A stretch of 64,000 nucleotides of DNA, from NCBI RefSeq assembly GCF_001640025.1, contig NC_031673.1, positions 558,001 through 622,000 on the forward strand, in the 5' to 3' direction. Made by a program: the position numbers and the translations under genes. Below are positions 371 through 45,605 of the stretch, one piece after another. The stretch comes from Sugiyamaella lignohabitans (lineage: Eukaryota > Ascomycota > Dipodascomycetes > Dipodascales > Trichomonascaceae). Each line of letters opens with the position of its first letter. The stretch's first letter is position 1. The notes below the pieces were generated by a model. That model saw only the letters and a list, made by a program, of their open reading frames with translations, did not search any database and was not told where the DNA came from.

Positions 371-430
371 GCCTCCGGCGGCTGGGGCTCTGCCCCAGAC
401 CCCATGGCTCCTCTCGCTACGCTCGAGTCG
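371..430 (+). repeat. GC double-hairpin element, copy 1 (left arm of inverted pair)
   Basis: It starts GCCTCCGGCGGCTGGGGC and contains the hairpin CTGGGGC-TCT-GCCCCAG, then the CTCTCGCT..CGCTCGAG module. It is antisense to KCH1; whether it is sense to a + strand gene left of the window cannot be seen. Confidence 0.9.
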
Positions 431-452
431 TTTCGTCGACGGTCCCGGTAAC

Positions 453-506
453 CTCCTGCGAAGCAGGAGCTACGGGGTCTGGGGCAGAGCCCCAGCCGCC
501 GGAGGC
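453..506 (-). repeat. GC double-hairpin element, copy 2 (right arm of inverted pair)
   Basis: Reverse-oriented copy. Its second module is the perfect hairpin CTCCTGC-NNN-GCAGGAG. It is sense-oriented 3' of KCH1, about 366 nt past the stop. Confidence 0.9.
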
Positions 507-872
507 AGTGCCCACCCGGTGAAGTTGCCCACCGCCAAAAAAAGTGTGTGGAATAAGCTACAACACCTTCTGTTCACGCCTGGTCTCCCACGGCATTACT
601 GAATAAGGCCCTCCGAGGCTTAAATATGATTGATCGGACGGGAAATCTTGCTGTACTCGAGATATGGTCGTAGCTGGCATCCGGTTTTTTATGTGGAAGT
701 AAAGTTGCAATGTGCTTCGCGGTGAATGGAAAAATTTAGTTGCAATCGAGTCGAATCCACATGGCTGTGCTCGTTCAAGTCTTATATAATCTCATGACGG
801 TATGGGCTTACACCGGAGGTGTAGGAGAAAGTGTGAGATAATGGGTCAATGCAAACAAATGTAATAAATAAG

Positions 873-3832
873 CTAGTAGAACGGGCTGGGCCTGCCAGAC
901 TGTTGCGATGCGGGTGACGAGGTGTCCTCGAAGGTGATTTTGGGAATGGTAGGCTGTCTCAGACGGGCTGCTGCTTTAGGAGGGGCATTGGGCTGAAAGA
1001 CAAAGGATACTGGTGACGGACCTCGAGGGTGGTTGTCATGGCCGAAGGGTGGTGGTTGTTCAGGCGAGGATATCTCGTCGTTTGAATAGACGATGAGATC
1101 CTCTTCAGCGTCTGAGAGCGATGACGTGGACTGTCTAAAAGGATTGCGGTCTTGTAAGTTAGGGAGTTTCGGTTCTCGAAACTGGAGTTCGGTTGGTGAG
1201 AGCTTGCTTTTTCGTAAATCGGCTGCCGTTTTGTGATCAGTGGTGGAGTGGTTTTCTTCAGAGGTACTCTCAAAGGGTAGTTTAGGCTCTCTGGACTTGA
1301 GCTCCTCGGGTGAGGGTTTGGTCTCTGCTGATAGCTGTCTTCTTAGATGTGCAGATAGCTCTGGTTTGCCAAAGTCAAAGGTATCAGCATCAGACTCATC
1401 AGAAGAAGGGTCGTTTTCAACTGTGGAAGTGAATGGCAGTTTTGGCTCCCGGAATTCAAGATCGCTGGGTTCCAGTTTACTCCCTCTGGATGAAGGAAGG
1501 TTTGTATCAGGGACACTGCTAAATGGTAGTTTGGGCTCTCTGTGTTCAATTTCGTCAGGCAAAAGTGTGCTTTTCCTGGACATGGGCATCTCTTTATTTA
1601 CTGGAATGGCAGCAGGCATGGTTTTCTGGCGACTGACGGACTTCGGTGGAATCTGTGTCTGTATTGGCAGAGATTTTTGTTTCACGAGTGGTCTTGGTTG
1701 GTCAACTACAACTACAGGCTGCTGGGGAACTGATCGTAGCTCCATTCCTTGGGGTACAACTGGCCCTTGACTGATATTTGCGGGATAAGAACTTAATGGG
1801 TTGGTGGTGTTGAAAGGTGTACTTGTCAAGCTTCGGCCATCAACTGGATAAGGCGTCGGTCGCTGTCGTTCAGCATTAGGATCCGGGAATGGCACCAACC
1901 GGTATGGATCTGGTCGCGGTGGTCTACCATCGTAGTCTTGCAATCCGGTCTGTGACTGGTCACTTGTTTGTACAGTGTTTGGAAAGTTGGGTTGTGTACC
2001 GAAAGACGGTGCTTGGCTGTAATTTGACATTCCTGTAGGAGCGACATTGCTTGGTTGGTATGGCTGTTGAACTCGCGTGTTCGTTGCCATATTTCGATAG
2101 GGCTTTTGACCATTATTTTGGTATTGATTGACATTCGGATTGAATTGGTTAGTTGGGAATGGATTGGAATTGGTGTTGGGTTGCTGAGTCTGATATGGAT
2201 TGGCATTCCGGTTTGATTGGTTTGGCACAAAATTTTCACGAGGAGTTGATAGGTTGGCACCTTTTGGTGGTACACTTGGTCGGCGATTGTAGATGTTGGT
2301 TTGACTGGTATTATTCCGGGGCAAGACCGGAGCAGGTGTCTTTGTTCGTGCATTCTGGTCCAGCAGAGGTGCATTATCATTTTCAGTAGAATCATATCCA
2401 TATCCACCTCCTCCAGTAATACCACCAGAAATTGAGTCAACTGATGTTGTTGAAGCGCCAAGGTCAGGTGTATTCACTGGATACTCTCGATATAGGGTGT
2501 CATTTTTGTTTGCTCGTGGCTGTAGCTGTGGCTGTGTTTGACTCCGAGGTGCACTCTGATTCCTGTAAACTCCTGCTCTGTTTCGATACGGTTGCTCTCC
2601 AGGGCGAGTTCTAGGACCGGGTCCAAACGTATCTTGTTTCAGGCTGGAACTTGGCTGAAGTGAGGACAACTGATCGAATGAATAACTGGCCTTCTCGTTG
2701 TAGCGACTGTGACTGTCGAGAGTGGATGTATCGACTCGAGGAAGTGATGGCTGTTTCTCTAACTTTTTATTGGCTTCTGCCAGCTCTTTCATTCCCTTTC
2801 GATGATACTTTTCAACTAGCCTGGCAATCCTTTTATTAACCTTAACACAGCAATACTCTTCTAGACCAGAAGCTTGGTCTCCAATATGAATGTAAATAGG
2901 CACAGCACAAATCAAAGCTAAGCCAAATTGGATGATATTCACTACCCATACCAACAAACTGAAAGCCATAAACCCAATTACCACAGCTTCAACCGTTGAG
3001 TTTTGTGCGAGCTTTTTAATTGTGCTCACAAAGTTCCCCTGAATCTGTAGCACCGAGTAAAGTGTCAATGCATTCAAAACTTGACGTGGCGAGTCTGCAA
3101 ATATCAAGCGGATCCAGCCTTTGAAACTAAAATACACAAATAGAGCCACATACTCTGTCAGACTTCTTGATTTGGTGAGCTTCGCAAACAGACAGAAGTA
3201 TCGGTACCCACGAATGCTGTAAACATTTCTCGCAATGGGGTCTGTATAGTTCAAGCTGATGTTCTTCGTTCGTATAGTAGTGTATGCCACAATGAAATCA
3301 TAGATAAAGAGCAAAACTGACAAAATAATACAGCCTCCAAAAAGCCATCTGGAAATCCTAAATGGCACATATGGCTCAATGGTAGAAGACCATCTATCAA
3401 ACGCTAGCAGCACAATACCAGTATAGATATCAGAGGCAAACGCTGCTATAGCAAGTAGAATACCAACATACATGACAAAGTATCCTGACAAGTATCGGAA
3501 CGACGTCGATACAAACTGATTTAGATCCTGTTCCTAGTTAGTATCAGCACCTAGCCACAACCTTAGCCATTTCCGCCTTCTTTTGCAATTGATCAAACTC
3601 TACCCCTTATAACTTCTTCTCATCTTTCAACAAATGCACAATGTCCTCAACACTCTATTCTCATAGTCCACAAAACAAACGATCCATAACTTGGGACCCT
3701 GTTACACAATCTCCACTGAACTACAATCCCCGAACCCCCTACTCCCACCACGCGACTTACTATCAGGTCGAAACGACTGTCGTCGTACTCGCGGACCCAT
3801 TTTTTGTTGAACAGTCCAAAAATGCGCAGCAT
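873..3832 (-). CDS. KCH1: KCH1/PRM6-family low-affinity K+ transporter, two exons
   Basis: Resembles the fungal Kch1 family, plasma-membrane proteins for low-affinity potassium uptake linked to calcium signalling in S. cerevisiae. The main exon (3527-873) encodes about four to five hydrophobic segments in its first 230 residues, then a long Ser/Gln/Asn/Pro-rich cytosolic tail. It has no upstream in-frame ATG near its start. I infer a first exon at 3832-3761 encoding MLRIFGLFNKKWVREYDD and further residues, a GTAAGT donor at 3760, a TACTAAC branch point near 3543-3537 and a CAG acceptor ending at 3528. The exons join in phase 0 to give about 908 aa and restore the expected hydrophilic N-terminus before the first membrane segment. 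The tail carries four copies of REPKLP(F) at about residues 684, 714, 769 and 807. It is divergent from BET4. Confidence 0.87.
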
Positions 3833-4111
3833 TTCTCTGTTCTGACAAACTAGCCAGCAAAATACACTTGATGATGGGTCCTGGTCTAAGTATACGGCAA
3901 ATGTGTATCAAGGGTGCAAAGATGATGATGTTTCGATCGTGAACCCCTGGATTGCCTCATTGGTCGCAATGGGTTGTGGTTTCATCCCTGATTTGTACTT
4001 GGAATTGGCGACGACGATCTATGCATGTGTCAACGGTTCCTCACCGAAATGGGAATCTGGCGTTTCTCTTATCTACAACCTCTTTTGTAAGACCGGACCT
4101 GTTGTGGGGTT

Positions 4112-4172
4112 TGCCTCCGGCGGCTGGGGCTCTGCCCCAAACCCCGTAGCTCCTCTCGCTTCGCTCGAGTCG
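4112..4172 (+). repeat. GC double-hairpin element, copy 3
   Basis: Carries GCCTCCGGCGGCTGGGGC and the TCT loop, with one change at the outer base of the first stem (CCCCAA instead of CCCCAG). It is not 3' of any visible gene. Confidence 0.9.
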
Positions 4173-5130
4173 AGTATCGGGGTTTGAAATTTTTCTCTGA
4201 TGTTAGCTGCAAATCGCGCTAAATCGTATTTTTTTCACAGATTTCAGATTTCACCCATTCAATTCTCTTTCTGCAAGAATATAGCAGAATTGTTTCAAAT
4301 TATTCTTCTCGCTTCAGTTATTGGTCGTGGTTCTGTTAATGTAACATTGGCTGCATTTAATTTTTTTTTTTTATTTTTCTTTTCGTGTAATTATAATATC
4401 TTTCTGCGTCCCAAATAATTATATTCCCCTCAAATTCTGCCGCTGCAGTAAGCACGGTGCTTGCCAATCATAAGTGCCCTGTGGTCCAAAAGCTGCACAC
4501 TTGGCTTGCAGCGTAGTTGAAACAGTTTCCGATATTTCCATCGGTACCCACTGCGCTGAACACTCTAATGAGATTACTGATCTTCCTAGAGCTATTTCTT
4601 TTATTTGCTTGGCGCATTAGCAGATTCTGACATCCACATGTCTTAAACTTATGCACGTTAGTTTCAAGTTTTTTAGTGCAGACCCCAACCATCAAACCAT
4701 TTAACCCTCTCGTTACTACGGCCTTCACCTCACTTGATAACGGTTTATTTAGATTGCGGTTGTATGAATAGTTTTCTATGAAATATACGTTGAACAGAAG
4801 TATGGCTATATAATAATGAGGGTATGAATGCGCGCATCTCAAAATATTACATAAGTAGACGGAAACCTGGGTTGTAACACTCCAAAAGAACACAATAACT
4901 CTTAATTTTCTTGAAGCTTACTGATAGTACTAACTCTCTTTCTTGAGCGAGACGCCTGCATGCCCCTGCAGGCTGTAACCTTATCTTGCATAACGTAGAC
5001 CCTGGACACGCTAACAGACTGTCTCTCCTCGGTGGTCTAAACGACGCAGTCCTCACCATTGTTAATGTTTTTTTGGCAGACAGCGCTTCCAATAATTGTT
5101 GATTGGGCTGTAAAATGGGGTGGGAAATTA

Positions 5131-5184
5131 GCCTCCGGCGGCTGGGGCTCCGCCCCAGACCCCGTTGCTCCTGCTTCGCAGGAG
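5131..5184 (+). repeat. GC double-hairpin element, copy 4
   Basis: First hairpin CTGGGGC-TCC-GCCCCAG; second hairpin CTCCTGC-TTC-GCAGGAG. Both have 7-bp stems and 3-nt loops, so this is the clearest two-hairpin copy. It lies in the upstream region of BET4. Confidence 0.9.
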
Positions 5185-5512
5185 ATTTCAGATTTTTTGC
5201 CAGTAGGTGGTTCAGCTTTAGTAGTTCAGATATCCCTGTGTTAGTTAACCACAAGAAGTATAGCTATTAATATAACAAATTGATCCTACTCTGGTTTGTT
5301 ACCCACAATTCAAAATTCTTGTACAACTTTTGTTCTCTTACCTCGGGCTCTAAATTAAAGGCTGTCTCCATTTTTTCTCGCCAAGGAATATACTCACAAT
5401 TTGATACTATCATACTATCATGTAACAAAGGTTTGTCCTTGCTCAAGAAGTAATTGAAGCTTCAACGATGGTATCTTTTTTTTTCTCACCCTATAACTGA
5501 TTATCTATGCTA

Positions 5513-5521
5513 TTCACGTGA
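5513..5521. promoter_or_regulatory. E-box TTCACGTGA upstream of BET4
   Basis: A CACGTG palindrome about 80 bp before the inferred BET4 ATG. CACGTG is bound by Cbf1/Pho4-type bHLH factors in yeasts. Use of this site is inference. Confidence 0.4.
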
Positions 5522-5599
5522 CTAGAGTAACTGACAGATGTGATAAACGCACCTCAGGCGAACATAGCTATCTTCATATTAATTATTAATTAATTAGAC

Positions 5600-6711
5600 A
5601 TGGTAGGTAAAAGTAATTGTAATTGATATCTGAGGATTCTTATTACGCATGGATCAAGCCTAATTGAATTGTCAGGAACAAATTGGACCTCTAATCTATA
5701 CTAACAATTCAGCATAGCATCAAGAAAGTGAAAACTACGGCCGAACAGGACGCCAAAAAGAAGCGAATTGAAGCTTCTCAGATCAAAGAGTATAATGATC
5801 TGGTAGAAAAGTATTTGGAACACAGAAAAGCTGGGAATCATGACAAAGAGGCATTTGATCTGACGACACAGATTCTCTCACTCAACCCCGAATCATATTC
5901 TATATGGAATTATCGAAGAGAGATCTTTGAAAAGGGATTCTTTCAAAAGGAAGGAGTCAGCAAAGATGATATCCAGCGCTTGTTAACAGATGATCTCAGG
6001 TTCTTGGATTCGAAAATGAGACAATTTCCAAAAGTTTACTGGATGTGGAACCACCGGCGATGGTGTTTAGAAAGCAGTCCGACACCTGACTGGCAGCGGG
6101 AATTGGGTCTGGTCTCTAAAATGCTTGAGTTGGACCCTCGTAATTTTCATGGCTGGCACTATCGTCGATATATCGTAGATCAAATCGAGAAGCATACTGG
6201 CGAATCTCTAGTAGATTCTGAGTTCCGATACACTACAGTCAAGATCAACCAGAACTTCTCCAACTTCTCCGCATGGCATAACCGAGCACAGCTCATTCCT
6301 CCGCATTTATCTCAACAAACTCCTGAAGAACGACGAGCGTTTCTCAAGTCCGAACTCGAATATATAACACAAGCCCTCTATACAGATCCAGATGACCAGT
6401 CCTCTTGGATTTATCATCAATGGCTTGTGACAACCGATTCAGTGGTCCCTGACCTCACTACTACTGAGAAAGTGACTATAATCAGCCAGGAGATTGATTC
6501 AATTAACCAGCTCTACGACCTTGAACCAGACAGCAAATGGTGCTGTCACCAGCTTGTCATCCTACACCAGCAGCTCAACAAAGTCTCTGGCACGCCAACC
6601 ACACCTGCAACAAAATCACTTCTTCTCAGCTACCTCGAAAAACTGGTCCTGATCGACCCCCTCCGCATTAACCGCTACAAGTATCTTATCTCCCTCGTCA
6701 ACCAGAGCTAA
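5600..6711 (+). CDS. BET4: Rab geranylgeranyltransferase (type II) alpha subunit Bet4; first exon is only the ATG
   Basis: Alpha subunit of GGTase-II, which with the beta subunit Bet2 and the escort protein Mrs6 prenylates Rab GTPases. The sequence shows repeated prenyltransferase alpha motifs of the type W-N-x-R-R (IWNYRRE, MWNHRRW, GWHYRRY, AWHNRAQ, WIYHQW). The main frame has no ATG at its start. It is preceded by TACTAAC-AATTCAG at 5699-5712, a perfect branch point and acceptor, and by an in-frame stop inside the intron. An ATG at 5600-5602 directly followed by GTAGGT gives exon 1 = ATG, intron 5603-5712 (110 bp) and exon 2 = 5713-6711. The product starts MHSIKKVKTTAEQ and is 333 aa. This matches the conserved MHG-x-x-KVKT start of Bet4/RABGGTA, which strongly supports the model. 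A GC element begins 15 nt after the stop. Confidence 0.93.
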
Positions 6712-6726
6712 GATGTGGATGGTTTT

Positions 6727-6777
6727 GCCTCCGGCGGCTGGGGCTCTGCCCCAGACCCCGTGGCTCGCTTCGCTCGT
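6727..6777 (+). repeat. GC double-hairpin element, copy 5 (3' of BET4, sense)
   Basis: Starts 15 nt after the BET4 stop in the sense orientation. First hairpin CTGGGGC-TCT-GCCCCAG; the second module is shortened. Confidence 0.9.
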
Positions 6778-7051
6778 TATTTCGGGTGCCACTTCAAATG
6801 CAAAATCAATTAACATGAAGAATGAGTAGCAAGCAGGAGGGTGATAAAAGGTGGATTTATTATCACATAAATTCGAGCCGTTGCTTGCCAATGCTGACTT
6901 GTCAATGCACTAGTTTATGCAACGAGAGAATCGAGTTAGAGGGTCGGGACAGGTCCTAAATGCTATAATTATCTCATTATGTGAAATTTTTAATATATCT
7001 ACAAAATTGGTTGTCTCAGGGGCAGAGGGGCTCGAAGAGGGGTATGGTGAT

Positions 7052-9987: not shown

Positions 9988-11164
9988 AACAATATTTAAA
10001 CGCCTAATATAAATAAATACATGCTCATTGTATACTTTTCTGGCTGCAATCGCTCACTTTATCCTGACCGGGCTCAAGGGTAGTTGGCCAAGGTTGCCTC
10101 CGGCGGCTGGGGCTCTGCCCCAGACCCCGTGGCTCCTCTCGCTGCGCTCGAGTCGTTACTTCCTCAGTCCCAAGGCTCTCAAATTAAGTACGAGCAAATT
10201 GAGTTGACTACAGTAACCGAGATCACTCAGAACCAACCTCATACCCTATAATATATCTGCGCCCAATGGATCCCGCTTGTGAATTGTATCTGTGATTTAA
10301 ATTGATCCCGATTGTAGAAGGAGAACTTTATGTGATCAGTTGCTTGAAAATCTCAAGCCTGGATAATTTTATTTTTAAGGCAGCTTGCACCTGTTTGCTC
10401 ACTAAAAGACCAAGTAAATGCATTCACATCGCTGTATTTATATTCCAACCTCTGCATTGCTATAGTCTGAGAAATCACATTTGAGAAAGGCATGAGATAA
10501 AGTTTTAGCAGAAACACAATTTTCTCGTTCAGCGCGTGAACATAGAAATTTGCTTTCACCCTTATTAGCTATGTCTCAGTCAAATCTTTAAGTAACTATA
10601 TTTAGGGCTATGAGATTAGTTCATGTAATGAAATGTTCATATAGTGTTTTATAAAGGTAATACCAAGGATAAAACTCAATTATATTATCATTTCCATTAA
10701 CAAAGCGGTTGATTAGTAGTTAATTGACCAAGCTATCCCGTGCGATGAAAATGGCCAAACTAAATCTTCTAACAATTCACTGGTTGTTCGTCACCTACAT
10801 AGTACTCTTATAGCCCTTATATAAGAACCATATAAATTTACTAGTTATTTCAGTTGCAAATGTTTAAACCTAATTTCAAAGCTACTATATCATTATATGT
10901 TATGAATATCCCACCAATATCAAATTATTTACCCCAGAGCCTGCTGTTTCCTGTTTCTAGAATTTTAAATCTACTGGAAAGTCCTAACAGATATGATTGA
11001 TAAGCTGGATGGACCCTGGCGTCACATGACATGCAGGGTGCAGGTCTGTGGGAGAGTATAAATAAGCAAGTGATGCAACATAGAATGTAATTTAAGATAA
11101 TAACACCGACTGATCTGTCTGATCCAAAGCTCACTAAGCAAAGCTAGATATACAGATTCAAACA
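9988..11164. other. PMT4-TFB3 intergenic region
   Basis: AT-rich intergenic sequence with one GC double-hairpin element at 10096-10155 and no supportable gene. The TFB3 promoter should lie at its right end. Confidence 0.6.
10096..10155 (+). repeat. GC double-hairpin element, copy 6 (3' of PMT4, sense)
   Basis: Starts 108 nt after the PMT4 stop in the sense orientation. First stem intact with loop TCT; second module CTCTCGCTGCGCTCGAG. Confidence 0.9.
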
Positions 11165-12353
11165 ATGGCGACGTCCACGGTCACACAGTCGCTGAATAGC
11201 GATAGTGGTAAGTGTAAAAAGTCCACAGATCAGGATCATTGCTCAGAATTTGTAACATGACTCCAGGATCCCGTCGACCTCCACCGCCCGATGCCCGACT
11301 CGAGCTTCGCTTGAGGAGCAGCGGGGTCTGGGGCGGAGTCCCAGCTGCCGGAGGCAATACTCACTCCTCCGAGCTTGACCAAGAATCCCTGACCAGAAAA
11401 CTAACAGAGTAGACATGTGTCCGATATGCAAATCGTCGAGATACTTGAATCCAGATATGAGGTTCCTAGTGAATCCCGAGTGCTATCACAAAATCTGTGA
11501 GAGTTGTGTAGACCGGATATTCTCGGTGGGTCCAGCCCAGTGTCCGTATGCTGGATGTGAGAAGATTCTTCGAAAGAACAAGTTCAAGACACAGGTGTTC
11601 GAGGATTTGGGTGTAGAACGAGAAGTCGACATCCGGGCACGAGTCAGCAGAACTTTTAATAAGAGACAACAGGATTTTGACTCACTGGACGATTACAATG
11701 ACTATCTAGAAGAAGTGGAAAACATCATATTCAACCTCGTCAACGGAGTGGATGTTGAAGCCACAGAGTCTAAACTACAAGCATATGAACAAGCCAACAG
11801 AAACATTATCCTTGCCAATTCGCTACGGCAGAAACAGGAAGACGAACAGATGGAAGAATTACAGAGTTTAGAGACCCAGAGACGTCGTAAAGCGCAATTG
11901 TTAGCATTACAAGCAGAGGAGGATGAGAGAAGAATCAAAGAACAGACTGAGAAGGAGCTTGTACGGCAACTGGCGACTGGTGAAGGAGATGCAGCTGCGA
12001 TCATGAAAAACGTGTCCAACATGGCATTGAAACGGTCTAGTGCGAGAAGACGTCAACTCGAGGAGGAACTCAGACAGCCATTGTCCATTCCATTGAGACT
12101 GCGAGGAGCTCGTAGCGCGACTCCTGGCAATGCTACTCCATTCACCCCATTCAACGGCGATAGACAGCAGGAATACCTTTTCACAGTCAACGACGAGTAC
12201 TTCGATCCTCTCATGAACGACGTCGCCAACAACCCACAGTACCGTGCGTCAGGCTTCTCCGTCAAAGGCTCGTTCCGCCAGGCTCTTGTCAGCGCTTTTT
12301 TCGGCATCGGCTGCGATGTTCAGCATGAGAAGGCCGCTCCGCTGGCAGTGTAG
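11165..12353 (+). CDS. TFB3: TFIIH/CAK assembly subunit Tfb3 (MAT1), two exons
   Basis: RING-finger subunit that tethers the Cdk-activating kinase module (Kin28-Ccl1 in yeast) to TFIIH. Exon 1 is 11165-11207 (MATSTVTQSLNSDS plus one base) and ends at a GTAAGT donor. The intron 11208-11412 (205 bp) ends ACTAACAGAGTAG. Exon 2 is 11413-12353. The split codon gives Asp, restoring DMCPICK. The product is 327 aa. The C3HC4 RING starts at Cys17 (CPICK) and continues through NPECYHKICESCVDR to PAQCPYAGC. It is followed by the conserved RKNKFKTQVFEDL segment and a Glu/Gln-rich coiled coil. The intron contains an antisense GC double-hairpin element, and another element starts 9 nt after the stop. It is convergent with CGI121. 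Confidence 0.95.
11296..11355 (-). repeat. GC double-hairpin element, copy 7, inside the TFB3 intron (antisense)
   Basis: Antisense to TFB3 and wholly inside its intron, roughly 90 bp from the donor and 57 bp from the acceptor. Its first stem has one decayed position (GTCCCAG in place of GCCCCAG), consistent with weaker constraint here. Confidence 0.88.
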
Positions 12354-12362: not shown

Positions 12363-12424
12363 GCCTCCGGCGGCTGGGGGCTGCGCCCCCAGACCCCCCG
12401 GCTCCTCTCGCTGCGCTCGAGTCG
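12363..12424 (+). repeat. GC double-hairpin element, copy 8 (3' of TFB3, sense)
   Basis: Starts 9 nt after the TFB3 stop. The first stem is one pair longer on both sides (CTGGGGGC-TGC-GCCCCCAG), a matched change in both arms. Confidence 0.92.
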
Positions 12425-12576
12425 GGCGTGGGGGTGCCAGGAGTTTGGAGGTTGGGGGAGCTGATCTAAGGAGCTTTCTTCCCGCTTTTGCCAAGTCCAA
12501 TTTGCTTCCCGGACGACAACCGATCGAAAAGCAGTTGCCCATGTTCCTCTACGAGCTGGGACACCCTCACGCCCGG

Positions 12577-12633
12577 CTCGAGCGAAGCGAGAGGCGCCAC
12601 GGGGTCTGGGGCGGAGCCCCAGCCGCCGGAGGC
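12577..12633 (-). repeat. GC double-hairpin element, copy 9 (3' of CGI121, sense)
   Basis: Minus orientation, 36 nt past the CGI121 stop. Together with copy 8 it forms an inverted pair about 150 bp apart in the TFB3/CGI121 convergent region. Confidence 0.92.
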
Positions 12634-14792: not shown

Positions 14793-14852
14793 TGCCTCCG
14801 ACGGCTGGGGCTCTGCCCCAGACCCTGGTTGCTCCTCTAACTTCGCTCGAGT
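14793..14852 (+). repeat. GC double-hairpin element, copy 10 (3' of RCR-like gene, sense)
   Basis: Core GCCTCCGACGGCTGGGGC with the TCT loop; it starts 56 nt after the stop of the RCR-like gene. Confidence 0.9.
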
Positions 14853-15040
14853 TGTGCTTCGCGGTCCCCATATGGTTCGGTGGCTGTGAGTTATTTGGGC
14901 GGCTGCATTTTGCCGCATTTCTGGGGGAGTTTGCAAAAGCCTGATTCGTACATCTAGCAAATGCAGGGGCACTTGTATCTTGCATAATGCAAGATAGAAG
15001 CACCGTGCAGAACCCGTTTAGGAATAGCCTGTCCAACGCT

Positions 15041-15101
15041 CGACTCGAGCGCAGCTAGAGGAGCAACCAGGGTCTGGGGCGGAGCCCCAGCTGCCGGAGG
15101 C
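15041..15101 (-). repeat. GC double-hairpin element, copy 11 (3' of FOL2, sense)
   Basis: Minus orientation, 252 nt past the FOL2 stop. It forms an inverted pair with copy 10 in the RCR/FOL2 convergent region. Confidence 0.9.
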
Positions 15102-19573: not shown

Positions 19574-19633
19574 CGACTCGAGCAAAGCGAGAGGAGTAGC
19601 GGGGTCTGGGGCGCAGCCCCAGCCGCCGGAGGC
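19574..19633 (-). repeat. GC double-hairpin element, copy 12 (3' of HUA1, sense)
   Basis: Minus orientation, 37 nt past the HUA1 stop. First stem intact with a different loop (GCA on the + strand). Confidence 0.92.
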
Positions 19634-22479: not shown

Positions 22480-22551
22480 GCCTTCATGGCCAAGTGGTAA
22501 GGCGCCTCACTAGTAATGAGGAGATCATCAGTTCGAGTCTGGTTGAAGGCA
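22480..22551 (+). tRNA. tRNA-Thr (anticodon AGT)
   Basis: A 72-nt cloverleaf: acceptor GCCTTCA/TGAAGGC, D arm GCC..GGC, anticodon stem CCTCA/TGAGG with loop CTAGTAA (anticodon AGT, read as IGU), T arm with TTCGAGT, discriminator A. No intron and no encoded CCA. A T-run follows at about 22590. The two copies at 37.1-37.3 kb are on the opposite strand. Confidence 0.96.
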
Positions 22552-23698: not shown

Positions 23699-23775
23699 AA
23701 TCATAGATTAATCATAATTTATCATAGATAAATCATAGATGAATCATAGATAAATCATAGATAAATCATAGATAA
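23699..23775. repeat. AATCATAGATA tandem array
   Basis: About seven units of an 11-bp repeat. The last four are nearly perfect and the first three degenerate. Sits inside the gene-poor island. Confidence 0.88.
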
Positions 23776-26700
23776 AAATCTGTCCAAATCGTAGATTCAC
23801 AAGGGGTCCCAATTATTACTTACCCTGCCGACATAAAGCTTTCTTTTTACTTACTTCCAACGGCGATGCAATGCACGGCAGTCTGCCCACCAAATTAAGT
23901 TGTAATATGTACAGAGGACGAGGCGCTATGTGCTTAAATTGGTGTCGACGGTTGACAAGATGGTGACAAATGTCTTACCTCTCGATTCAGATCAAAACCT
24001 GGGCTCATGACAAATAAAGGCTTGAAAATGGAATTCAATGGCATAAACACAGATCAAGACAGAAAATATCGAGAAAATTGGTTGAAGGCCAGGTTAAAAT
24101 GCAAACTAGCTGCTGGGACTATAAATATTAACCGCGGCACACCCATGTGCAAAGTGCATAGATCGCTTCGATTGCGTCTCTGCTCTGCAAATCTTTCACT
24201 TAATACTCCACTCTAATATCGGGGTCTTGATGCTTTTATATTACGCGAGTTTTAACCTCACCCAAACCATGGAGTCGAGTCTTAGAAACCATTATATAGA
24301 GGTCTGAAAAAGAAAACAAGTTCTCTGGAAGTTCGACTGATAGACAGCACTTACCAAATATGGCCAAATAGGAAGGTGAAAAGAAAATTCCGACCCAGAT
24401 CATACACACCTATGTGGAGAACGTGGAAAGTGAATGTGGAAGTGAATTGGATAGTGGTGGCTCAAAACATTTTAGATATGTGGCTGAATCTTTACGAATA
24501 TCCATTTCAAGGTGTGAGAAAGCCTATCATATATTGAATTTCAAGCTTTCGGCTGAACCGGTTTAACCGATCGAGCAGATCCTTCTTCTGAAATTTTGAA
24601 TTTAATTATTTTGAACAAGAGAATTTGCCCAGTCAGCATCACGGCCACAATTAACCTTGACCACACTATTGAGAAGAAAATACTTGATTTCCTAGATATC
24701 AAACATCAAACGCCCAATTGGGAGTTACCGCTAGCCTTCTTATCATGATTGCGTGATTAGGCTTAGCCTGACAATGAAGCTGACACAGGCGCCGATTACA
24801 TTGCTGCAAATGTTCTCAATAGAATTCACATCCAAAAGCTTATGCCCATTATACTCAGCTTGGGTCTTGGCCAGTCTGCGTGGGACGGAATGGATGCATG
24901 CACTGCATATAAAGTTTCAATCGGGAGCCAATGCTTCTGTGACCCGATGCTCTTACCCGTGTTGAAACTGGATACTAAATACCCCCAAAGCCTTGTCGTA
25001 GCGCTGTCCATAGATAATAATATTATATTACAAAGGACCAGTTAAGGCTCCAGTCCTATGGAAGTGATCCAACATAATTTCTCGGCTGACTTCTAGCCGG
25101 CGGGCTTTAGCATGTGATAGTGGCCATGACCAACAAATTGATGCCGTCTCTAAGACGCCTGGTGCCTGATACCATATACCGTTTGTTGGGAATAAGCATC
25201 TGGTGGTAGCGGTTATTATGCATTGGGGGAGAGAGAGAACTTGAGTTCAAGGGGCACCCAGCGCTGATACAATTCTGTTCGGGAAACTGTTCAACTGAGT
25301 ACTATTGTTGAATCCTGTAACTGGTTTCTTTCTGTCCGAGTAAGCCGAATACTTCTTCTTTCTTCAAGTTGCCCTGATATCAATTGACCAAAATAGAAAC
25401 CATAAACACTGGGCCTTTGTTGACTGTGATGGGTCTGCAGGTACAAGCTCTTGAGTGTTGAGTCCAGGCCTTGAGTCCAGGCCCAGCTTGCTTCGAATTC
25501 ACTCCAAGCTCTAAGCGAAGAAGACTTGTAACCCAACTGATCACCGGTTCTCGGGTAATTGATCAATCTGACTACTAGAATGAATTAGTTTAAGTACCAA
25601 TTGCATTTAGAGTTGAGGGATGACTTAGTCTGTGAATTTGGTCAATGCCACCATGGGGACATGATCGGGCTGCTCAACGTCTAACCCGCATCCAAATTAG
25701 AGTTAGAATTTGGCACGCAGGAGCATAACGAACACAACAACGCGAGATAATCACAGGCTGTTTACACTGTGTCTAATGCTTGTCTGAATAAATGTCTCAT
25801 CCAACTTGGTAATCAATTTTACAGCATCTATATCTAGTTACCAATAGCCAGTTTTATTTCTTCCATCCTGTAGCCCATCCGCTTTCTTCTGCATTTTGCA
25901 TATTATGTTTAACCGCTGCTGCTGCTGCGACCGGTTATAGTTAGAAATGAGCGACGCTATAGATCAACGGTCAATCTGAGAGCCCATATTGCTCCAATTC
26001 CATAGAAAACGATCTAGTTCCCTTTATCTTAGCATCCATAGATCCTGTCCCCAACTATAAGGTTAAATATAGATTCCGCAAGCTGGTTTGCTTACTGATG
26101 TGGAGAAGGTTCAATGTTGATAACCTTTGCTGCATATCAGCTTGCTGGTATTCTCTCGGCACTATGTTTACAGGTTTCAAATTCTAATATAGCGACGGTT
26201 AAATCAGCACAGTCAACTATCTGAGGGGAAAGCAATCTTGGTCAATTAAGAAGGGATACTAATCAAGTAAACAAAAAAAAAAAAAAACACCGCCAAACTC
26301 TATGATTAAATAATGTCACTTTCTGTTTCGATATTATATAACGTAGCGCCGTTCTGTATAAATGAAATCAGTTTTAGTACTGAAATTTGCCCAGAAAAAC
26401 GTGCTTGATTTCCTAAATTTTCGATAGCTTGAAATAATTCAATATCTGTTTTGTCACAGCAATTAGTTCAGCTCGCTCTTTACATCTGGTCTCTCAATTC
26501 TGCTGAGTTTGTTTGAAATACCTATCAAATACCTTGAATAATAGACACTTCTAGATTAAGTTACCGATACAGAGCTAGCTGACAAGTATCACGATTGCTA
26601 GTGAGAGACATTATGAAAAATTCCAATTTTTGCCAGTGAACTAGATGAGAGAATTTCTAGTTACTATTAGCCAGAGACTCACAAGTCGCTGAAATTTTGC

Positions 26701-37110: not shown

Positions 37111-37182
37111 TGCCTTCGACCAGACTCGAACTGATGATCTCCTCATTACTAGTGAGGCGCCTTACCACTTGGCCACGAAGGC
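37111..37182 (-). tRNA. tRNA-Thr (anticodon AGT), second of a tandem pair
   Basis: Same cloverleaf as the copy at 22480, except that the last acceptor pair is G:C rather than A:T (GCCTTCG/CGAAGGC), a compensatory change. A T-run on the minus strand follows at about 37090-37080 and can serve as Pol III terminator. Confidence 0.96.
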
Positions 37183-37201
37183 GGCGTGAAAGATAATTAA
37201 C

Positions 37202-37273
37202 TGCCCTCAACCAGACTCGAACTGATGATCTCCTCATTACTAGTGAGGCGCCTTACCACTTGGCCATGAGGGC
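37202..37273 (-). tRNA. tRNA-Thr (anticodon AGT), first of a tandem pair
   Basis: Acceptor GCCCTCA/TGAGGGC, a compensatory C:G change at the fourth pair. It is transcribed toward the next tRNA, only 19 nt away (37183-37201), and the spacer has no run of four or more T. Joint transcription with the next tRNA is likely. Confidence 0.96.
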
Positions 37274-37361
37274 AATTTTTGATTTGCGAATACCCACGTT
37301 CCACTACGGTAAATGCTTTATCCCAAATATCCATATTTTCCAACGTTTAGTTGCCAGTATT

Positions 37362-37414
37362 TCCTGCGAAGCAGGAGCCAGGGGGTCTGGGGCGGAGCCC
37401 CAGCCACCAGAGGC
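37362..37414 (-). repeat. GC double-hairpin element, copy 13 (3' of UGA1, sense)
   Basis: Minus orientation, 152 nt past the UGA1 stop. It has the perfect second hairpin (TCCTGCGAAGCAGGAG). The outer core is partly decayed (CCACCAGAGGC). Confidence 0.88.
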
Positions 37415-39051: not shown

Positions 39052-39151
39052 TATACAAATAAATTAACTGTCAATAAAAGCACAAAAAAAGACTTGTTGA
39101 CAGGGATAAGTAAAGAAGAAGAAACAGAATAGATCAATCCAGAAATCACCC

Positions 39152-40052: not shown

Positions 40053-40113
40053 TGCCTCCGGCGGCTGGGGCTGCGCCCCAGACCCCGTGGCTCCTCTCGC
40101 TGCGCTCGAGTCG
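40053..40113 (+). repeat. GC double-hairpin element, copy 14 (left arm of close inverted pair)
   Basis: First hairpin CTGGGGC-TGC-GCCCCAG. Antisense to SET2. The pair with copy 15 is separated by about 24 nt. Confidence 0.92.
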
Positions 40114-40137
40114 TTGCTCGGGGGTCGCCAGAGTGTT

Positions 40138-40180
40138 CGCTTCGCACAACGGGGTCTGGGGCGTAGCCCCAGCCGCCGGA
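40138..40180 (-). repeat. GC double-hairpin element, copy 15 (3' of SET2, sense)
   Basis: Minus orientation, 88 nt past the SET2 stop. First stem intact with yet another loop (GTA on the + strand). The second module is shortened. Confidence 0.9.
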
Positions 40181-40268
40181 GACACATCCACCATCCCCCT
40201 GAGACGCTGGCTGGCTGAATAAATTACATTAACTCGTAGAATACAATACATACAGAGGCCCGGTTGGC

Positions 40269-43018
40269 TCAGTCTACGCGGCGGCGTTTGTTGTCGGCGT
40301 CGCTCGTGTCGGATGTGCGCTTGGTCCTATTTTTGTGCTTTTCTTCGTACTTGGCTACCGCCTTTTCCATGTATATTTTCACGAACTTCTTGACCTTGGC
40401 TTTCTTGTCGTCAGACAGCTCGTGCGGACTCTTGATCTCGCGGCCATCTTTCGTCTCTTTTCCGACTAATGTCTTGACGATGTCTTTGGAAAATTGCTTC
40501 ATGTTCTCGTGACCGCCGACTTTGTCTTCGTACTTTTTCACCAGGTTCGGCACAAACTTGGCCAGCTAGAGTGTGTTAGTATGGTCATATATACTTCACG
40601 GTTTCTGGTCATCTCGTCTATACTCTCGTGAAGTGAGATGTGCTAGGTGCTACTTACAGTTCTGGTGAAGACGGATTCTGGAGTATCGTCCTCACGCTTC
40701 TTTTTCTTTTCACTGCTTGGCCGATGGCTGGACCGATGCGATGATTTGGTTTTCACAGCGTCGACAATGGACTGCAGCTCGTTGATTTTCTGCTGTTGCA
40801 GAAGCACAATATTTTGGCGACTTTGGTTTGCTGATTCGATGATCTGTTCGATTTGAAGCCGTTCTTGCTCTTTCTGCAGCAGTTCGGCCTTTTCTCTCTC
40901 GTTATCGGGAATAATGCGCGAGTCTTTTTGTGGAGACCCTTCTTTCGGTAGCGTCCAGGAACTGAGTCCTGTGGTGCGGTTGAAATAATATCGACGCCCG
41001 TCTGGTGCTAAAGCCGTTTCCCAGCCTGAAGGTAGCGGTGATGGTGATCTGGTCCTATTGCGACGGTACCGATTATCATAATCCCGCTCCCGGCCTCTAT
41101 TATTATAGTTATCTTTAGCACCCCAGTCTCGTCTCGGTAGCTTTTCACCACGGTTGTCTTGAATATTATCGTGGCTATTACTACCATAAGCACGAGGATA
41201 TGCTGGTCTGGTTGGTGACGATGACGCTCCCTCTTCTTGAGGAGTACCACTGGCTGAATTCGAATTAGTGCTTTCTTTAGCACCTCTTTCTCGTCGGGGA
41301 ATCCGATATGCCATTTCTAAACTGCTCCATTCTTGGAGTAAAGTGGATGCCAGTTTCTGCACTTTGTCTGATGTACTATCTTTAGCCAGTCCAGCTACGA
41401 TAGACTCGATTTTCGAACTGGAAATCTTGTTTTTGGTCAGTCGTGGCCATCGAGTCAGAATCTCCAGAATCATTAGTGGCACTACATCATTGGGCCAGTC
41501 TGCTGCTAATATTACACTGAACACTTGGTATCCATGCATTCTCATCACTTGGCCATGCACACTGCTATCATCCGTAATAAAAATACGGTTGACCAGTTTT
41601 TCAATTAACCACTGCTCCTGGCCTTGAAGCAGCGCACTCATGATTTTGGTTACCGACTCTTCCTGAACAGGTTTGGCAGGAAGCGACAGTGAATACTCTC
41701 GATACAGATCCTCATCTGAAGCCCCACTAGCATCAGCAGTGGCATATTTGCCATCTCGGCCATCTTTTTTGAATTTTTTGGCAATAGAAAGCCACTGCTT
41801 CTCATCTTGTCGCGTGAGATCGAGAACGTCGACTATTAGTTGCGGTAGTTTGGTAGCTGCTGCCTCCGTCTGAGTCTTTCCACCTAAGATACCTATGCAA
41901 TTCGACTCTCCACAATAACAAGGTTGTGCTTGAGTACCATATCGGTCTACATTATAATCAAAGGTAATCTCCTCGCCTTTGATAATATCCCGTTTGCTGA
42001 AAATGCCCATTCTAACTTTGTCGCCAACAATCCATTTGTCAACATAGCAGTTAGGACGACAGGAATGGTTACAGAATCGCGCCATACTTCCTTGTTTCGT
42101 GGCATCTATAAACTCGCCTTTCTGAAGCATCATAAAGTAAAAGTGTCGGATTCCTTCCAATTTATAGGTTTCCATTCTTTGACGGAAATTACTTTCGTCA
42201 ATGACCTCACCTATATATTCGTAGATAAAAGTATTTTGAGGAATCGCCTCCAACGCCCGTACACCATATCCTTTGAGCTCAGTTTGAATAACATCCACAT
42301 TAGCATATTGTTTAGCTTGAAACCTCTGATTGCCACAGTCGTCTCCGCATGTACAGTTATCGTTAGTACACTCAATAGACGTGAGTCTATTAATACAATC
42401 AGAATCATCACCACATGCAATATTTTTTCCATTAACCCAGTGCTCCCGGCAGTCACAGTTCATAGCTTCCACTTGACCTGAGCTACCAATATTGCCTCTT
42501 CCTTGGTATGTGCACTGTTCGAGCTGGATATATGTTGATTGAGCCTCTGCAGTCTTAGACTCTAGGTCGTTGAAGAGTTGTCGAGTAACTTTTACATTCT
42601 TTTTGTCTTCAGATTTCGGTTTAATCTGGTCGTCAAATGGATCAACAGGCTCTTCTGAACCAGCACTGTCGCCATCAGTAATTGTGTTTTCTTGTTTCAA
42701 ATCAGAGCGAGTCACAGTTCCGTTGCCTCTTGCCCTTCTGCCAGCTCCAGAAACTGGTTCGTCATCTTCGTCAATATCCGACTTGTCGTCATTACTAATA
42801 TCGATGATTTCCACCTTGGGTTTGCTAGTTGAAATTTTTATATTGTTTTCCTTTTTCAAGACCTTTGATGGGGCTGCCGCAACGCGGACCTTTTCACTCG
42901 AGACCGAGTTCTCTGCTGGTCCATGCGATCCGTTTTGTTTGCTGGGCTTATCTCCATACAGGTCGTCATCTGAGTCCGAAAATTCGATCACCTTAATAGG
43001 CCTTGATATTTTCGACAT
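40269..43018 (-). CDS. SET2: Histone H3 Lys36 methyltransferase Set2, two exons
   Basis: Methylates H3K36 during RNA polymerase II elongation. Exon 1 (43018-40658) encodes a Ser/Asp-rich N-terminus, the Cys-rich AWS domain (about residues 185-235), the SET domain (about 237-358, with RFCNHSCRPNCY and GEEITFDYN), a post-SET CYCGESNC motif, and a WW domain (about 661-692, GWETALAPDGRRYYF). The frame then runs into a GTAAGT donor. The intron 40657-40566 (92 bp) has the branch point TACTAAC and ends CACACTCTAG. Exon 2 (40565-40269) encodes LAKFVPNLVKKYEDKVGG and further helical sequence, the SRI domain that binds the phosphorylated Pol II CTD. The join is in phase 0 and gives 885 aa. Without splicing the protein would lose SRI. 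Confidence 0.96.
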
Positions 43019-43397
43019 TGGAGCATGAGGTAATCTCTCCTTTCGTTGGCCTGAAGTTTCCTTAATCAGAACTAGTTCATCAACGCGCGACTTCGCATCG
43101 CAGCCTTCACCGCATCCTACAGATATGCATGTATCCGCCTATTGAAGCCTATTACCGGATTCTTGGTAACAGCCCAGTAGCACTACTACCCCAGTCTGAG
43201 CTCCGTTTCAGGCCATTGTGTCCTCTCACTAATCTCGAGTCGTTTTCGAGGGGTTCCCAAATATCTCCTGCGTAGCAGGAGCCACGGGGTCTGGGGCAGA
43301 GCCCCAGTCGCCGAAGGCAAATGCAACATAGAACAGTAAAGCAAAATTTATTACTAAGCAGGGTGGAGAGGATTCATTAATCGTAATTGTGCTGTCA
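43019..43397. other. SET2 5' region / PNPOx 3' region
   Basis: Short intergenic region with the GC double-hairpin element at 43265-43319 and a degenerate trace of a facing left arm (TCCTCTCAC..CTCGAGTCG, about 43220-43243). Confidence 0.6.
43265..43319 (-). repeat. GC double-hairpin element, copy 16 (3' of PNPOx-like gene, sense)
   Basis: Minus orientation, 78 nt past the stop. Second hairpin CTCCTGC-GTA-GCAGGAG is perfect with a loop unlike the other copies. The outer core is slightly decayed (CGCCGAAGGC). Confidence 0.9.
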
Positions 43398-44336
43398 TTA
43401 GGGACTGAGGTCCTGCTCTTTCCATTCGTCGTATCGGACACGAGTGAATAGAGTGCGACGGCCGATAGACTCATCGACGACGATATCGACCTGGTTAACG
43501 AGCATGAGTACCACTACAAAGTGCTCTTTACCCGAATCCTCGCTCGCACCGTCGACTCCACGGGAAATTGAGTCAAGAGCTTTCGTCGTAGAACCGTCAA
43601 GCAATGATTTGGGTGTAGGATACTTGAAAGTCTTCTTCATGCGAGGGGACATGCTGGACCACAGTCGATTATATTCATTAAGCCACTCTTCAGCGGTGGG
43701 AGGAGGGAATATCGAGTCGTAGTCGGTAGATGGGTCGTATGAGGGTGTTATTACAGGATAGTAAGACCGTGGAAGGTGCTTTCGTGAAGTAGCAGCAGAC
43801 GCCAATGGAGCTAATATCGTCTCCGAAGGTGAGGAAGATGTACCTTTAGCTTCGTTATTGGCCGTATTATTTGATGAGGAATCTGGAACTGCAACAGGTG
43901 CTGATGAATTATTAGGATTTGGTGATCCAGGGTTTCCCGACGGAGATCCAGAACGGGACGACGATCCTGAAGATGGTGGTGACGACTTGACAGGTTGACT
44001 CAGCGGCAGAGTCGAAGAAAGCTGGGGTGTATGATTAGGCGATAACAGCTGTGCAAATCCAGACAGTCTGATTTGGGTACTTTTATTAGGGAAATAGAAA
44101 CATGCTTCATATGCGTCGTTTGTCTCATTGAGATCGCTTACTTTTTGCATTCTCATATCGGTGGTAAATACCAAAACTCCAGTGGATTTGTCGTCAAACA
44201 GCCATCCTCGTGACACACAGGTTCTTGCATGAGGGATCCGGTTGTGTGATACTGTACAAAATGTGAATGTTGGCAATTTCTCTACTGCTTTTAAGCATGA
44301 ATCAAGTAGCGGTGTCCACGGGGGAGGACAAGACAT
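43398..44336 (-). CDS. PNP oxidase-like FMN-binding protein (Alr4036/YLR456W type)
   Basis: A 312-aa protein with the N-terminal layout of the fungal pyridoxamine-phosphate-oxidase-like family (S. cerevisiae YLR456W/YPR172W): WTPLLDSCLK, then FCTVSHNRIPHARTCVSRGW, then VLVFTTDMRMQKV, which form the split-barrel flavin-binding core. A Ser/Asn/Pro-rich insert (about residues 110-180) is followed by a C-terminal part with EEWLNEYNRLWSSMSPRMKK and DIVVDESIGRRTLFTRVR, typical of this family's C-terminal end. The substrate is unknown; some relatives are proposed flavin-dependent oxidoreductases. Whether it makes PLP cannot be told. Confidence 0.83.
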   Translation of the reverse strand: MSCPPPWTPLLDSCLKAVEKLPTFTFCTVSHNRIPHARTCVSRGWLFDDKSTGVLVFTTDMRMQKVSDLNETNDAYEACFYFPNKSTQIRLSGFAQLLSPNHTPQLSSTLPLSQPVKSSPPSSGSSSRSGSPSGNPGSPNPNNSSAPVAVPDSSSNNTANNEAKGTSSSPSETILAPLASAATSRKHLPRSYYPVITPSYDPSTDYDSIFPPPTAEEWLNEYNRLWSSMSPRMKKTFKYPTPKSLLDGSTTKALDSISRGVDGASEDSGKEHFVVVLMLVNQVDIVVDESIGRRTLFTRVRYDEWKEQDLSP

Positions 44337-44719
44337 GATGATGATATTGCTTGTCGAACCAATGGGAAAACTAAACTACACCGGGTATATGCAAATAAAA
44401 TGCAGATATAAAAACAATTATCAGATAGATCGCTTGACAGGCTAGTTTCGCAAGATCAATTTAGAACTTAATTTCGAATTAATTGGATGTGAAATGTTGG
44501 GGCAACGGAACCCAGCCAAATAAATAGGATCGAAGAGAGTCAAGTCAAGTGGATCAGCTAACCAATATGCCGAATTGGCCTAATTATATTATGTTGCTGG
44601 TAATCGTTCAAAAATATCCCTGTTCCAGTTCCTTGACTACGGGAACGTTCGGATTGAGTATAATATTAGAATTAAACTTTTGCGAAGGGTCACTGAAAGA
44701 CGGAATATTTGATCAGCTT

Positions 44720-44728
44720 ATCACGTGA
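44720..44728. promoter_or_regulatory. ATCACGTGA, Cbf1-type E-box
   Basis: A perfect RTCACGTG site about 385 bp upstream of the PNPOx-like start. Cbf1/Pho4-type binding is known for this motif; use here is inference. Confidence 0.45.
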
Positions 44729-45544
44729 GTTTGATCCGAACTATTCCATTAACTCCGATGGCAAGAGGGCAATGAATGTTAAAGTAGTAAGGCGGCTCGA
44801 TTACTAAACAAAATAGTACCAAATATTTAGTGTGATCGGAAAATCTAAAGAAACGGATAATACAGACGTCGTGGTGATTTATATAAATTAAATTGATGAC
44901 CGATGCCGCATTCACACTGGGAAAATTATACCATTCACATACATTCTGCTGCATATAACAATGCTTGTTGCAGTGATTCACTGAGAGCATCGGACCAGCT
45001 CTGAGATGAGGGAAAAAACCACCCAGGGCCACCGCGGGCCAGTCAGGTTCGAATTAAGCGCCAGCATGGGTCTATAAAATCAATTGAAAGTCAGCTCAAG
45101 AATACAAACTATAACAAAGACTGCTGTCTAAAAAAGGTGTATTTCAATTCTGCTTCGATTAATTGATATTGGAAATGACTGATCATATTCTGGTAGCAGA
45201 CGGTTACGGCGTTTAGTCTATAACACCCCTACCCCCTCTTTCGTCCCCTATTTTTTTTTTTGTCCTTTCTGCATGATGGGTCAACTCAAGAGGGGCTCAT
45301 GAGACCAGCTGATGTCGCGTGTCAGCTTTTGGAGCCAGCACGAGACCGCTTTCCTCAACAGCCTTAGCTGATTTCACCAGTTCATCTTGGACCACGAATT
45401 AGCCAACCAAGAGGTTTATCGCGAGCACGAGCATCGTTGCCATCGATATCCAGCAGATAACGCATCTGTCTCACGGCATGCAGTGCACCAGGTGTGCCGC
45501 TACTTGAGCATATGTCCCCCACCAACGACGGGCCGAGTCGATCT

Positions 45545-45605
45545 GCCTCCGGCGGCTGGGACGTTGCCCCAGATCCCATTGCTCCTCTCGCGTTGCTCGA
45601 CTCGT
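45545..45605 (+). repeat. GC double-hairpin element, copy 17 (decayed)
   Basis: Core GCCTCCGGCGGCTGGG is kept but the first stem is broken (GACGTTGCCCCAG), with changes in the second module. It does not follow a stop codon in the sense orientation. Confidence 0.85.

What the first reader, a model, noticed from the sequence alone, without database searches (positions are those of the whole stretch)
371..45605. GC double-hairpin family sits just 3' of stop codons in the sense orientation
The sequence shows 17 arms of one element (core GCCTCCGGCGGCTGGGGC, then a 7-bp/3-nt hairpin). In the two regions that carry it (0.9-20.7 and 37.5-44.4 kb), 11 of 12 protein genes have a copy downstream of the stop in the same strand sense. 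Gaps are TFB3 9 nt, BET4 15, CGI121 36, HUA1 37, RCR-like 56, PNPOx-like 78, SET2 88, PMT4 108, UGA1 152, FOL2 252, KCH1 366. Six other arms are not so placed. Such orientation bias is unexpected for a neutral repeat. It could mark a 3'-end/UTR structure, an insulator between neighbours, or a mobile hairpin that inserts behind transcription units. Palindromic double-hairpin elements are known from some fungal mitochondrial genomes (Allomyces); a nuclear, orientation-biased set would be new as far as I know.
Basis: partly seen in the sequence, partly recalled or inferred. Interest (0 to 1): 0.78.

Follow-up and report, generated by a model that had tools for sequence, protein, structure and literature searches.

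The report
Hairpin repeat family behind yeast genes
A yeast carries thousands of copies of a short GC-rich hairpin element that cluster just behind genes, and a hairpin of the same build recurs behind genes in some sulfate-reducing bacteria, which makes it a test case for how such repeats spread and what they do at gene ends.

Summary
The repeat is real: 17 arms in the window and 6,932 copies of the 18-mer (up to 2 mismatches) in the 15.9-Mb yeast genome. In a 310-kb sample arms often form inverted units of about 139 bp: 56 '+ then -' neighbours within 200 bp against 4 '- then +'. In such a unit the arm facing any stop is 'sense' by geometry. Placement behind stops is genuine and holds outside the window: 20 units within 100 nt 3' of a stop, 5.8 expected (0 of 400 permutations), and 2 within 100 nt 5' of an ATG, 6.4 expected. 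A residual strand bias of solo arms is moderate and depends on how pairs are defined: 14:4 to 21:4 within 200 nt of a stop, outside the window 9:4 (p 0.13) to 13:4 (p 0.025). A 32-nt stretch of the arm (one base left open) occurs in two Desulfovibrionaceae genomes, where the same head, 3-nt-loop hairpin and similar tail form an interspersed repeat, often behind stops. Best reading: a non-autonomous palindromic repeat retained in transcription-end zones. A terminator or insulator role and shared descent with the bacterial repeat remain open.

The parts
359..518 (.). full inverted-pair element (B arm 371+, A arm 489-, 138 bp between arm ends) with flanking G-rich/C-rich tracts, 3' of KCH1
4113..4172 (+). 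solo B-type arm; outer stem GGGGTTT/AAACCCC
5131..5187 (+). solo A-type arm with perfect CTCCTGC-TTC-GCAGGAG hairpin
6727..6776 (+). solo arm, 15 nt 3' of BET4-like stop, sense
10096..10155 (+). solo B-type arm, 108 nt 3' of PMT4 stop, sense
11296..11355 (-). solo B-type arm with mismatches, in the region 5' of TFB3 (antisense to it)
12363..12633 (.). B/B neighbours (12363+ and 12616-, 273 bp) between convergent TFB3 and CGI121; one long unit or two arms
14794..15101 (.). B/B neighbours (14794+ and 15084-, 310 bp) between convergent RCR-like gene and FOL2; one long unit or two arms
19574..19633 (-). solo B-type arm, 37 nt 3' of HUA1-like stop (sense) and 140 nt 3' of the 778-aa ORF (antisense)
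37359..37414 (-). solo A-type arm, 152 nt 3' of UGA1 stop, sense
40054..40183 (.). inverted pair (40054+ B type, 40166-, 131 bp) 3' of SET2
43221..43318 (-). A arm with a degraded mate, 79 nt 3' of the PNPOx-like stop, sense
45545..45604 (+). solo B-type arm with mismatches

Best explanation
This is a high-copy, non-autonomous palindromic repeat of a yeast nuclear genome. Each arm is head GCCTCCGGCGGC, hairpin TGGGGC-NNN-GCCCCA, tail GACCC, then one of three exchangeable hairpins (A, B or C). Two arms in inverted order around a short spacer make a full unit of about 139 bp; many arms stand alone (shown). Copies are young, or kept alike, and differ mainly by subfamily marks in the loops (shown). 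The unit spreads by copying to new sites without a detectable target-site duplication, preferring G-rich/C-rich, partly palindromic sites at a T^A step (inferred from flanks). Copies are lost from ORFs and promoters and survive, or are placed, in the transcription-end zone just behind stop codons (location shown; cause inferred). Much of the apparent sense orientation follows from the inverted-pair geometry; a residual sense bias of solo arms is moderate and unexplained.
For: Whole-genome count 6,932, control 0+1. '+ then -' neighbours within 200 bp 56, '- then +' 4, same strand 12. With pairs up to 360 bp: 65 of 142 units are pairs, commonest lengths 138-141 bp, 41 of the 65 being A with B. 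Intact spacer plus part of B 448 times, control 0. Flanks differ between copies. Units in ORFs 15 of 142, 71.6 expected; within 100 nt 3' of stops 33, 10.8 expected; within 100 nt 5' of ATG 3, 9.0 expected. Units per kb: convergent 1.16, tandem 0.91, divergent 0.53. Hairpin-2 stem unchanged in 181 of 207 arms while its loop has 18 forms, some of them from shifted arms. In 55 pairs no direct-repeat excess in the flanks (z 1.2), but inverted similarity (z 3.3, above all 200 shuffles).
Against: No empty site could be shown and no mobilising enzyme was found among four families tried. A purely passive repeat should show no orientation: solo arms within 200 nt of a stop 14:4 to 21:4 sense; A/B pairs A-proximal 10, B-proximal 4 within 200 nt, 13:4 within 400; solo arms nearest a start antisense 9, sense 2 within 400 nt. 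The bacterial repeat behind stop codons hints at a function.
Confidence: 0.5

Rival explanations
1. The element works at gene ends: as DNA or RNA hairpin it helps end transcription or separates convergent and tandem neighbours, so copies behind genes are kept by selection.
For: Sharp placement within 100 nt of stops and a gradient convergent > tandem > divergent. Residual sense bias of solo arms. The one full unit folded gives -119 kcal/mol on either strand, z -11 and -12. The stop-to-element gap is AT-rich (59%) and holds TATATA in 8 of 49 and TTTTTT in 7 of 49 cases, against 6 and 1 of 49 in the 120 nt after the element, as if the element followed the poly(A) region. One mitochondrial transcript of Candida albicans stops at a GC-rich hairpin (PMC4618339, passages).
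Against: 43 of 100 stops had no arm within 400 nt (2 more cut off by stretch ends). Many copies are far from stops. The three solo arms folded were less striking: z -3.4, -0.9, -2.0. The AT signals are no rarer behind genes without an element: TATATA and TTTTTT each 6 of 40 in the first 120 nt. Changes seen once hit stem and loop of hairpin 2 at similar rates per site (my reading). Purifying selection against ORF and promoter insertions gives the same placement.
Confidence: 0.25
2. The yeast element and the Desulfovibrionaceae repeat are one lineage that crossed between bacteria and yeast.
For: The 32-mer (one base open) matches exactly in two Desulfovibrionaceae MAGs and nowhere else in the collection of 84,980 prokaryote species genomes. 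Same head, 3-nt loops of the same kinds, GACCC-type tail. 23 of 59 family genomes carry head plus closed hairpin, control 0 in all 59. '+ then -' pairs 181-240 bp apart: 4 in the part that was listed and 3 in that, against 1 '- then +' (46 bp).
Against: Hairpins A/B/C of the yeast were not seen in the bacterial copies read. A form with GGGGC stem is rare: 4 of 198 genomes of the phylum, G002 itself included. No intermediate host is known. GC-rich hairpins can converge, and in frame the head reads Ala-Ser-Gly-Gly in favoured codons, so the head alone is weak evidence.
Confidence: 0.2
3. A DNA transposon derivative (MITE) with long terminal inverted repeats and a lost or rare autonomous parent.
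For: Terminal inverted arms, small size, thousands of copies. Two DDE_1 genes exist in the genome.
Against: No target-site duplication detected. No high-copy transposase among the families tried: Y1_Tnp 0, DDE_1 2, RVT_1 13; the Helitron search is void by its own control. Internally GC-rich with serial hairpins, unlike usual MITEs (recalled).
Confidence: 0.3

Closest known systems
Mitochondrial GC clusters and double-hairpin elements (yeasts, Allomyces, sponges)
   Same: Short GC-rich palindromes, dispersed, conserved stems with some loop differences, inferred mobile, merging and shuffling of modules (PMC4478555, PMC4618339, PMC2800124: passages only).
   Different: Here nuclear, about 7,000 arms, a different sequence, no target duplication detected, strongly placed behind stop codons.
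Bacterial extragenic palindromes of the REP/BIME type
   Same: Inverted palindromic arms in pairs, extragenic, behind genes (features of REP/BIME recalled).
   Different: Yeast genome; no Y1 transposase of the RAYT kind found; different sequence.
Desulfovibrionaceae GCCTCCGGCGGC hairpin repeat (unnamed as far as I know; found here)
   Same: Identical 12-nt head, adjoining hairpin with 3-nt loop, tail of GACCC type, 6 of 10 copies in L114-L121 within 34 nt 3' of a same-strand ORF end, '+ then -' pairs.
   Different: Stem sequence varies widely and the following hairpins differ; at most 75 copies per genome in 59 genomes searched.
MITEs
   Same: Small, non-coding, terminal inverted repeats, high copy number.
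   Different: No target-site duplication detected; GC-rich; no parent transposon found.

Membership tests
MITE | terminal inverted repeats in a small non-coding unit | tested here: met
   56 '+ then -' pairs within 200 bp against 4 '- then +'; commonest lengths 138-141 bp
MITE | target-site duplication of fixed length | tested here: not met
   no direct-repeat excess in the flanks of 55 pairs, z 1.2; inverted similarity instead
MITE | related autonomous transposon in the genome | tested here: inconclusive
   DDE_1 2 matches, RVT_1 13 matches, their ends not compared; Helitron search void by its own control
REP/BIME with RAYT | RAYT (Y1_Tnp) transposase in the genome | tested here: not met
   0 matches in the own genome; the control search rang in 6 of 14 genomes
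REP/BIME with RAYT | paired inverted palindromic arms in extragenic DNA behind genes | tested here: met
mitochondrial GC cluster / double-hairpin element | resides in mitochondrial DNA | tested here: not met
   window lies on a 2.28-Mb contig with nuclear genes
mitochondrial GC cluster / double-hairpin element | adjacent GC-rich stem-loops with conserved stems and variable loops | tested here: met
Desulfovibrionaceae GCCTCCGGCGGC repeat | head GCCTCCGGCGGC directly followed by a closed hairpin with 3-nt loop and GACCC-type tail | tested here: met
Desulfovibrionaceae GCCTCCGGCGGC repeat | common descent | not testable with these tools
   no collection of other fungal genomes on hand; the own genome has no relatives in the tool

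The most novel reading that the evidence does not exclude
One hairpin module, matching over 32 nt with one base left open, lives in a yeast nucleus and in Desulfovibrionaceae, in both cases spreading as inverted arms that settle, with a sense preference, just behind stop codons: a mobile gene-end hairpin shared across domains of life by horizontal transfer, acting in both as a transcript-end structure.
Probability: 0.15. Interest if true: 0.88.

Novelty: new variant of a known kind. Interest (0 to 1): 0.62.

Why it matters
In the papers I saw, GC-rich hairpin repeats of this sort were described from mitochondria. A nuclear family of about 7,000 arms, placed at gene ends and open to yeast genetics, would let one test whether such hairpins are mere passengers or shape 3' ends of transcripts. 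If the link to the bacterial repeat is descent, it would be a mobile non-coding hairpin that crossed domains, and a route to finding what moves it.

Tried and rejected
Strand bias as the main finding: accepted only in part, since compact pairs make it automatic; the size of the residual bias depends on the pair definition, which I had first tested in one version only. The 150-bp version (30:5) splits true pairs and is not used. Chance repeats: rejected. Rfam at gathering thresholds: only tRNAs and 5S rRNA in the window. Direct target-site duplications: none detected. RAYT, Helitron, DDE_1 and reverse-transcriptase partners: no clear candidate; the Helitron answer is void by its own control. 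Codon-score gene calls missed known genes such as TFB3 and were not used; counts use ATG ORFs of at least 150 codons, so genes with introns or short ORFs are missed. Poly(A)-signal placement: too weak to decide. A first count with up to 4 mismatches held opposite-strand artefacts and was replaced by nhmmer arms. The 2.5-Mb gap in the place list is a listing artefact, because one search finds copies there. Viral contigs with the 32-mer and a 26-mer: 0 hits; with head plus GGGC: 56 contigs, 4 of which show an adjoining hairpin, so there the head is mostly noise. Phage and plasmid collections: partial matches, chiefly Streptomyces and Vibrio plasmids.
Full report
What is there. The 18-mer GCCTCCGGCGGCTGGGGC occurs 17 times in the window with up to 3 mismatches, and in none of 100 shuffles. 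The window is part of a 15.93-Mb genome in 4 contigs. The closest named homologues of its PMT4 among the listed hits are from Geotrichum (65%) and Trichomonascus (64%), so it is a yeast of that neighbourhood. The exact species was not identified; Sugiyamaella lignohabitans is my recollection from genome size. Genome-wide there are 3,436 forward and 3,496 reverse copies with up to 2 mismatches, control 0 and 1.

Sample. I read 309,731 bp: the window, 19 stretches of 10 kb spread over the four contigs, and 30 loci of 3 kb near the start of contig 1 that were picked for exact forward copies.

Anatomy. An arm is T + GCCTCCGGCGGC + TGGGGC-NNN-GCCCCA + GACCC, then a short joint and a third hairpin in one of three main forms: A CTCCTGC-TTC-GCAGGAG, B CTCTCGCTNCGCTCGAGTCG, C GTGCTCGC-TTC-GCGAGC. 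Neighbouring arms within 200 bp are '+ then -' 56 times, '- then +' 4 times, same strand 12 times, so the inverted pair is a real unit. With a limit of 360 bp there are 65 pairs, the commonest lengths being 138-141 bp; 41 of the 65 join an A with a B arm around a spacer like GGGACCGTCGACGGAACGA. Spacer plus part of B occurs 448 times in the genome with up to 3 mismatches, control 0. The hairpin-2 stem is unchanged in 181 of 207 arms, while the loop has 18 forms led by TCC 117, TCT 31, GCT 19; a few of these come from shifted arms. Third hairpins keep perfect pairing across several different stem sequences, but the commonest form, B, is an imperfect hairpin. The one full unit folded gives -119 kcal/mol against -70 for shuffles (z -11); three solo arms gave z -3.4, -0.9 and -2.0.

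Flanks. Left flanks are G-rich, right flanks C-rich, with T before and A after the unit. In 55 pairs the two flanks resemble each other as inverted repeats more than shuffled partners do (score 311.5, mean 282.7, largest of 200 shuffles 306), and not as direct repeats (z 1.2). A few copies extend the palindrome by 10 to 16 positions of copy-specific sequence with at most one mismatch; many show none. This argues against an ordinary target duplication and for palindromic targets or a fold-back mode of copying; it does not tell which.

Placement. With ORFs of at least 150 codons, 15 of 142 units lie in ORFs against 71.6 expected. Of 127 intergenic units, 33 lie within 100 nt 3' of a stop (expected 10.8, 0 of 400 permutations reach it) and 3 within 100 nt 5' of an ATG (expected 9.0). 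In the 19 ten-kb stretches alone, without the window and without the selected loci: 20 against 5.8, and 2 against 6.4. Density falls from convergent (1.16 per kb) over tandem (0.91) to divergent intergenic space (0.53). Of 102 stops, 57 have an arm within 400 nt, 43 have none and 2 are cut off.

Strand. In a '+ then -' unit the arm facing any stop is sense by construction; 35 of the 57 first arms come from pairs. For solo arms the answer depends on where a pair ends. With pairs up to 360 bp, solo arms nearest a stop within 200 nt are 14 sense to 4 antisense (one-sided p 0.015), outside the window 9:4 (p 0.13). With pairs up to 200 bp they are 21:4 (p 0.0005), outside the window 13:4 (p 0.025); but within 400 nt outside the window 14:9 (p 0.20). 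The window is where the claim was made, so the outside figures count most. Full A/B units, which do have a direction, turn the A arm to the stop in 10 and the B arm in 4 within 200 nt, 13 and 4 within 400. Solo arms whose nearest gene end is a start within 400 nt: 9 antisense, 2 sense. The A/B and start-side tests were thought of after the fact. Together they make a sense preference likely but not established, and smaller than the raw 11 of 12 suggests.

The bacterial counterpart. The pattern GCCTCCGGCGGCTGGGGCTCNGCCCCAGACCC matches exactly in just two contigs of the prokaryote collection, both Desulfovibrionaceae MAGs. One lies 1 nt behind an ORF end, in sense (I take the gene for argG from its sequence, not from a search). 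In that family the head followed by a closed GGGC-NNN-GCCC hairpin is found in 23 of 59 genomes, up to 75 copies each, with 0 control matches in all 59; the two starting genomes are among the 23. The form with a GGGGC stem is rare: 4 of 198 genomes of the phylum. Stems vary (CAAAGGGC, CAGGGGC, CAGAGAGGGC and others) with matching partners, loops include the kinds seen in yeast (TCC, TCT, GCT, TGC, TTC), and tails read GACCC, GAATCCC, GGAAACCCC and the like. In loci L114-L121, 6 of 10 copies lie 3 to 34 nt behind the end of a same-strand ORF (my reading). In the earlier loci the script's own rule finds this for 2 of 6 distinct copies, the other 4 overlapping an opposite-strand ORF; ORF calls in such GC-rich DNA are uncertain. 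'+ then -' pairs 181-240 bp apart occur 7 times in the listed parts, against one '- then +'. The head alone is poor evidence, since it can be codons; head, hairpin and tail together are not explained by that. Descent, common mechanism and convergence remain open.

Print. The two longer sequence strings give no paper; the 11-mer CCTCCGGCGGC gives 14 whose titles have nothing to do with repeats (listing only). Topic searches (titles and starts of abstracts only, 8 of 8, 1 of 1, 15 of 400 and 10 of 55 papers listed) showed no nuclear family of this kind; a search for Sugiyamaella lignohabitans listed 20 of 38 papers, none on repeats by title. Only open-access full texts are held, so this does not show that none exists. 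The nearest described things are mitochondrial GC clusters and double-hairpin elements (passages of PMC4478555, PMC4618339, PMC2800124).

Verdict. A real, large, gene-end-placed palindromic repeat family. The strand claim is in good part geometry, with a moderate remainder. The unexpected part is the bacterial counterpart.

Noticed in passing
L050 4654-4685; L051 1282-1313; L114-L121: Desulfovibrionaceae carry an interspersed repeat with the same head, 3-nt-loop hairpin and a similar tail as the yeast arm, often just behind stop codons.
   Followed up: partly
L116, L119, L121: In the bacterial repeat the tail after the hairpin seems to follow the stem: GGGG with CCCC, AAAGGGG with AAACCCC, GAGAGGG with CTCTCCC, as if a mirror repeat were kept (read by eye).
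   Followed up: no
window 555-675: A 5S rRNA gene (minus strand) lies beside the full element at 371-506.
   Followed up: no
window 22480-22551, 37111-37274: Three tRNA-Thr(AGT) genes, two of them in tandem.
   Followed up: no
window 23700-23776: Tandem array of an 11-bp unit like ATCATAGATAA.
   Followed up: no
window 40269-40565: A 98-aa open frame on the minus strand looks like the last exon of SET2, so SET2 probably has an intron near its end.
   Followed up: no
genome G000, C1:2077421 and C2:579589: Two listed elements lie within about 200 nt behind mitochondrial-carrier domain ends found independently, both sense or A-first; compared by hand, and the element lists show only the first 100 places.
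   Followed up: partly
sampled 10-kb stretches L031-L049: Element density varies from 0 to 16 arms per 10 kb and tends to rise with regional GC content (by eye).
   Followed up: no
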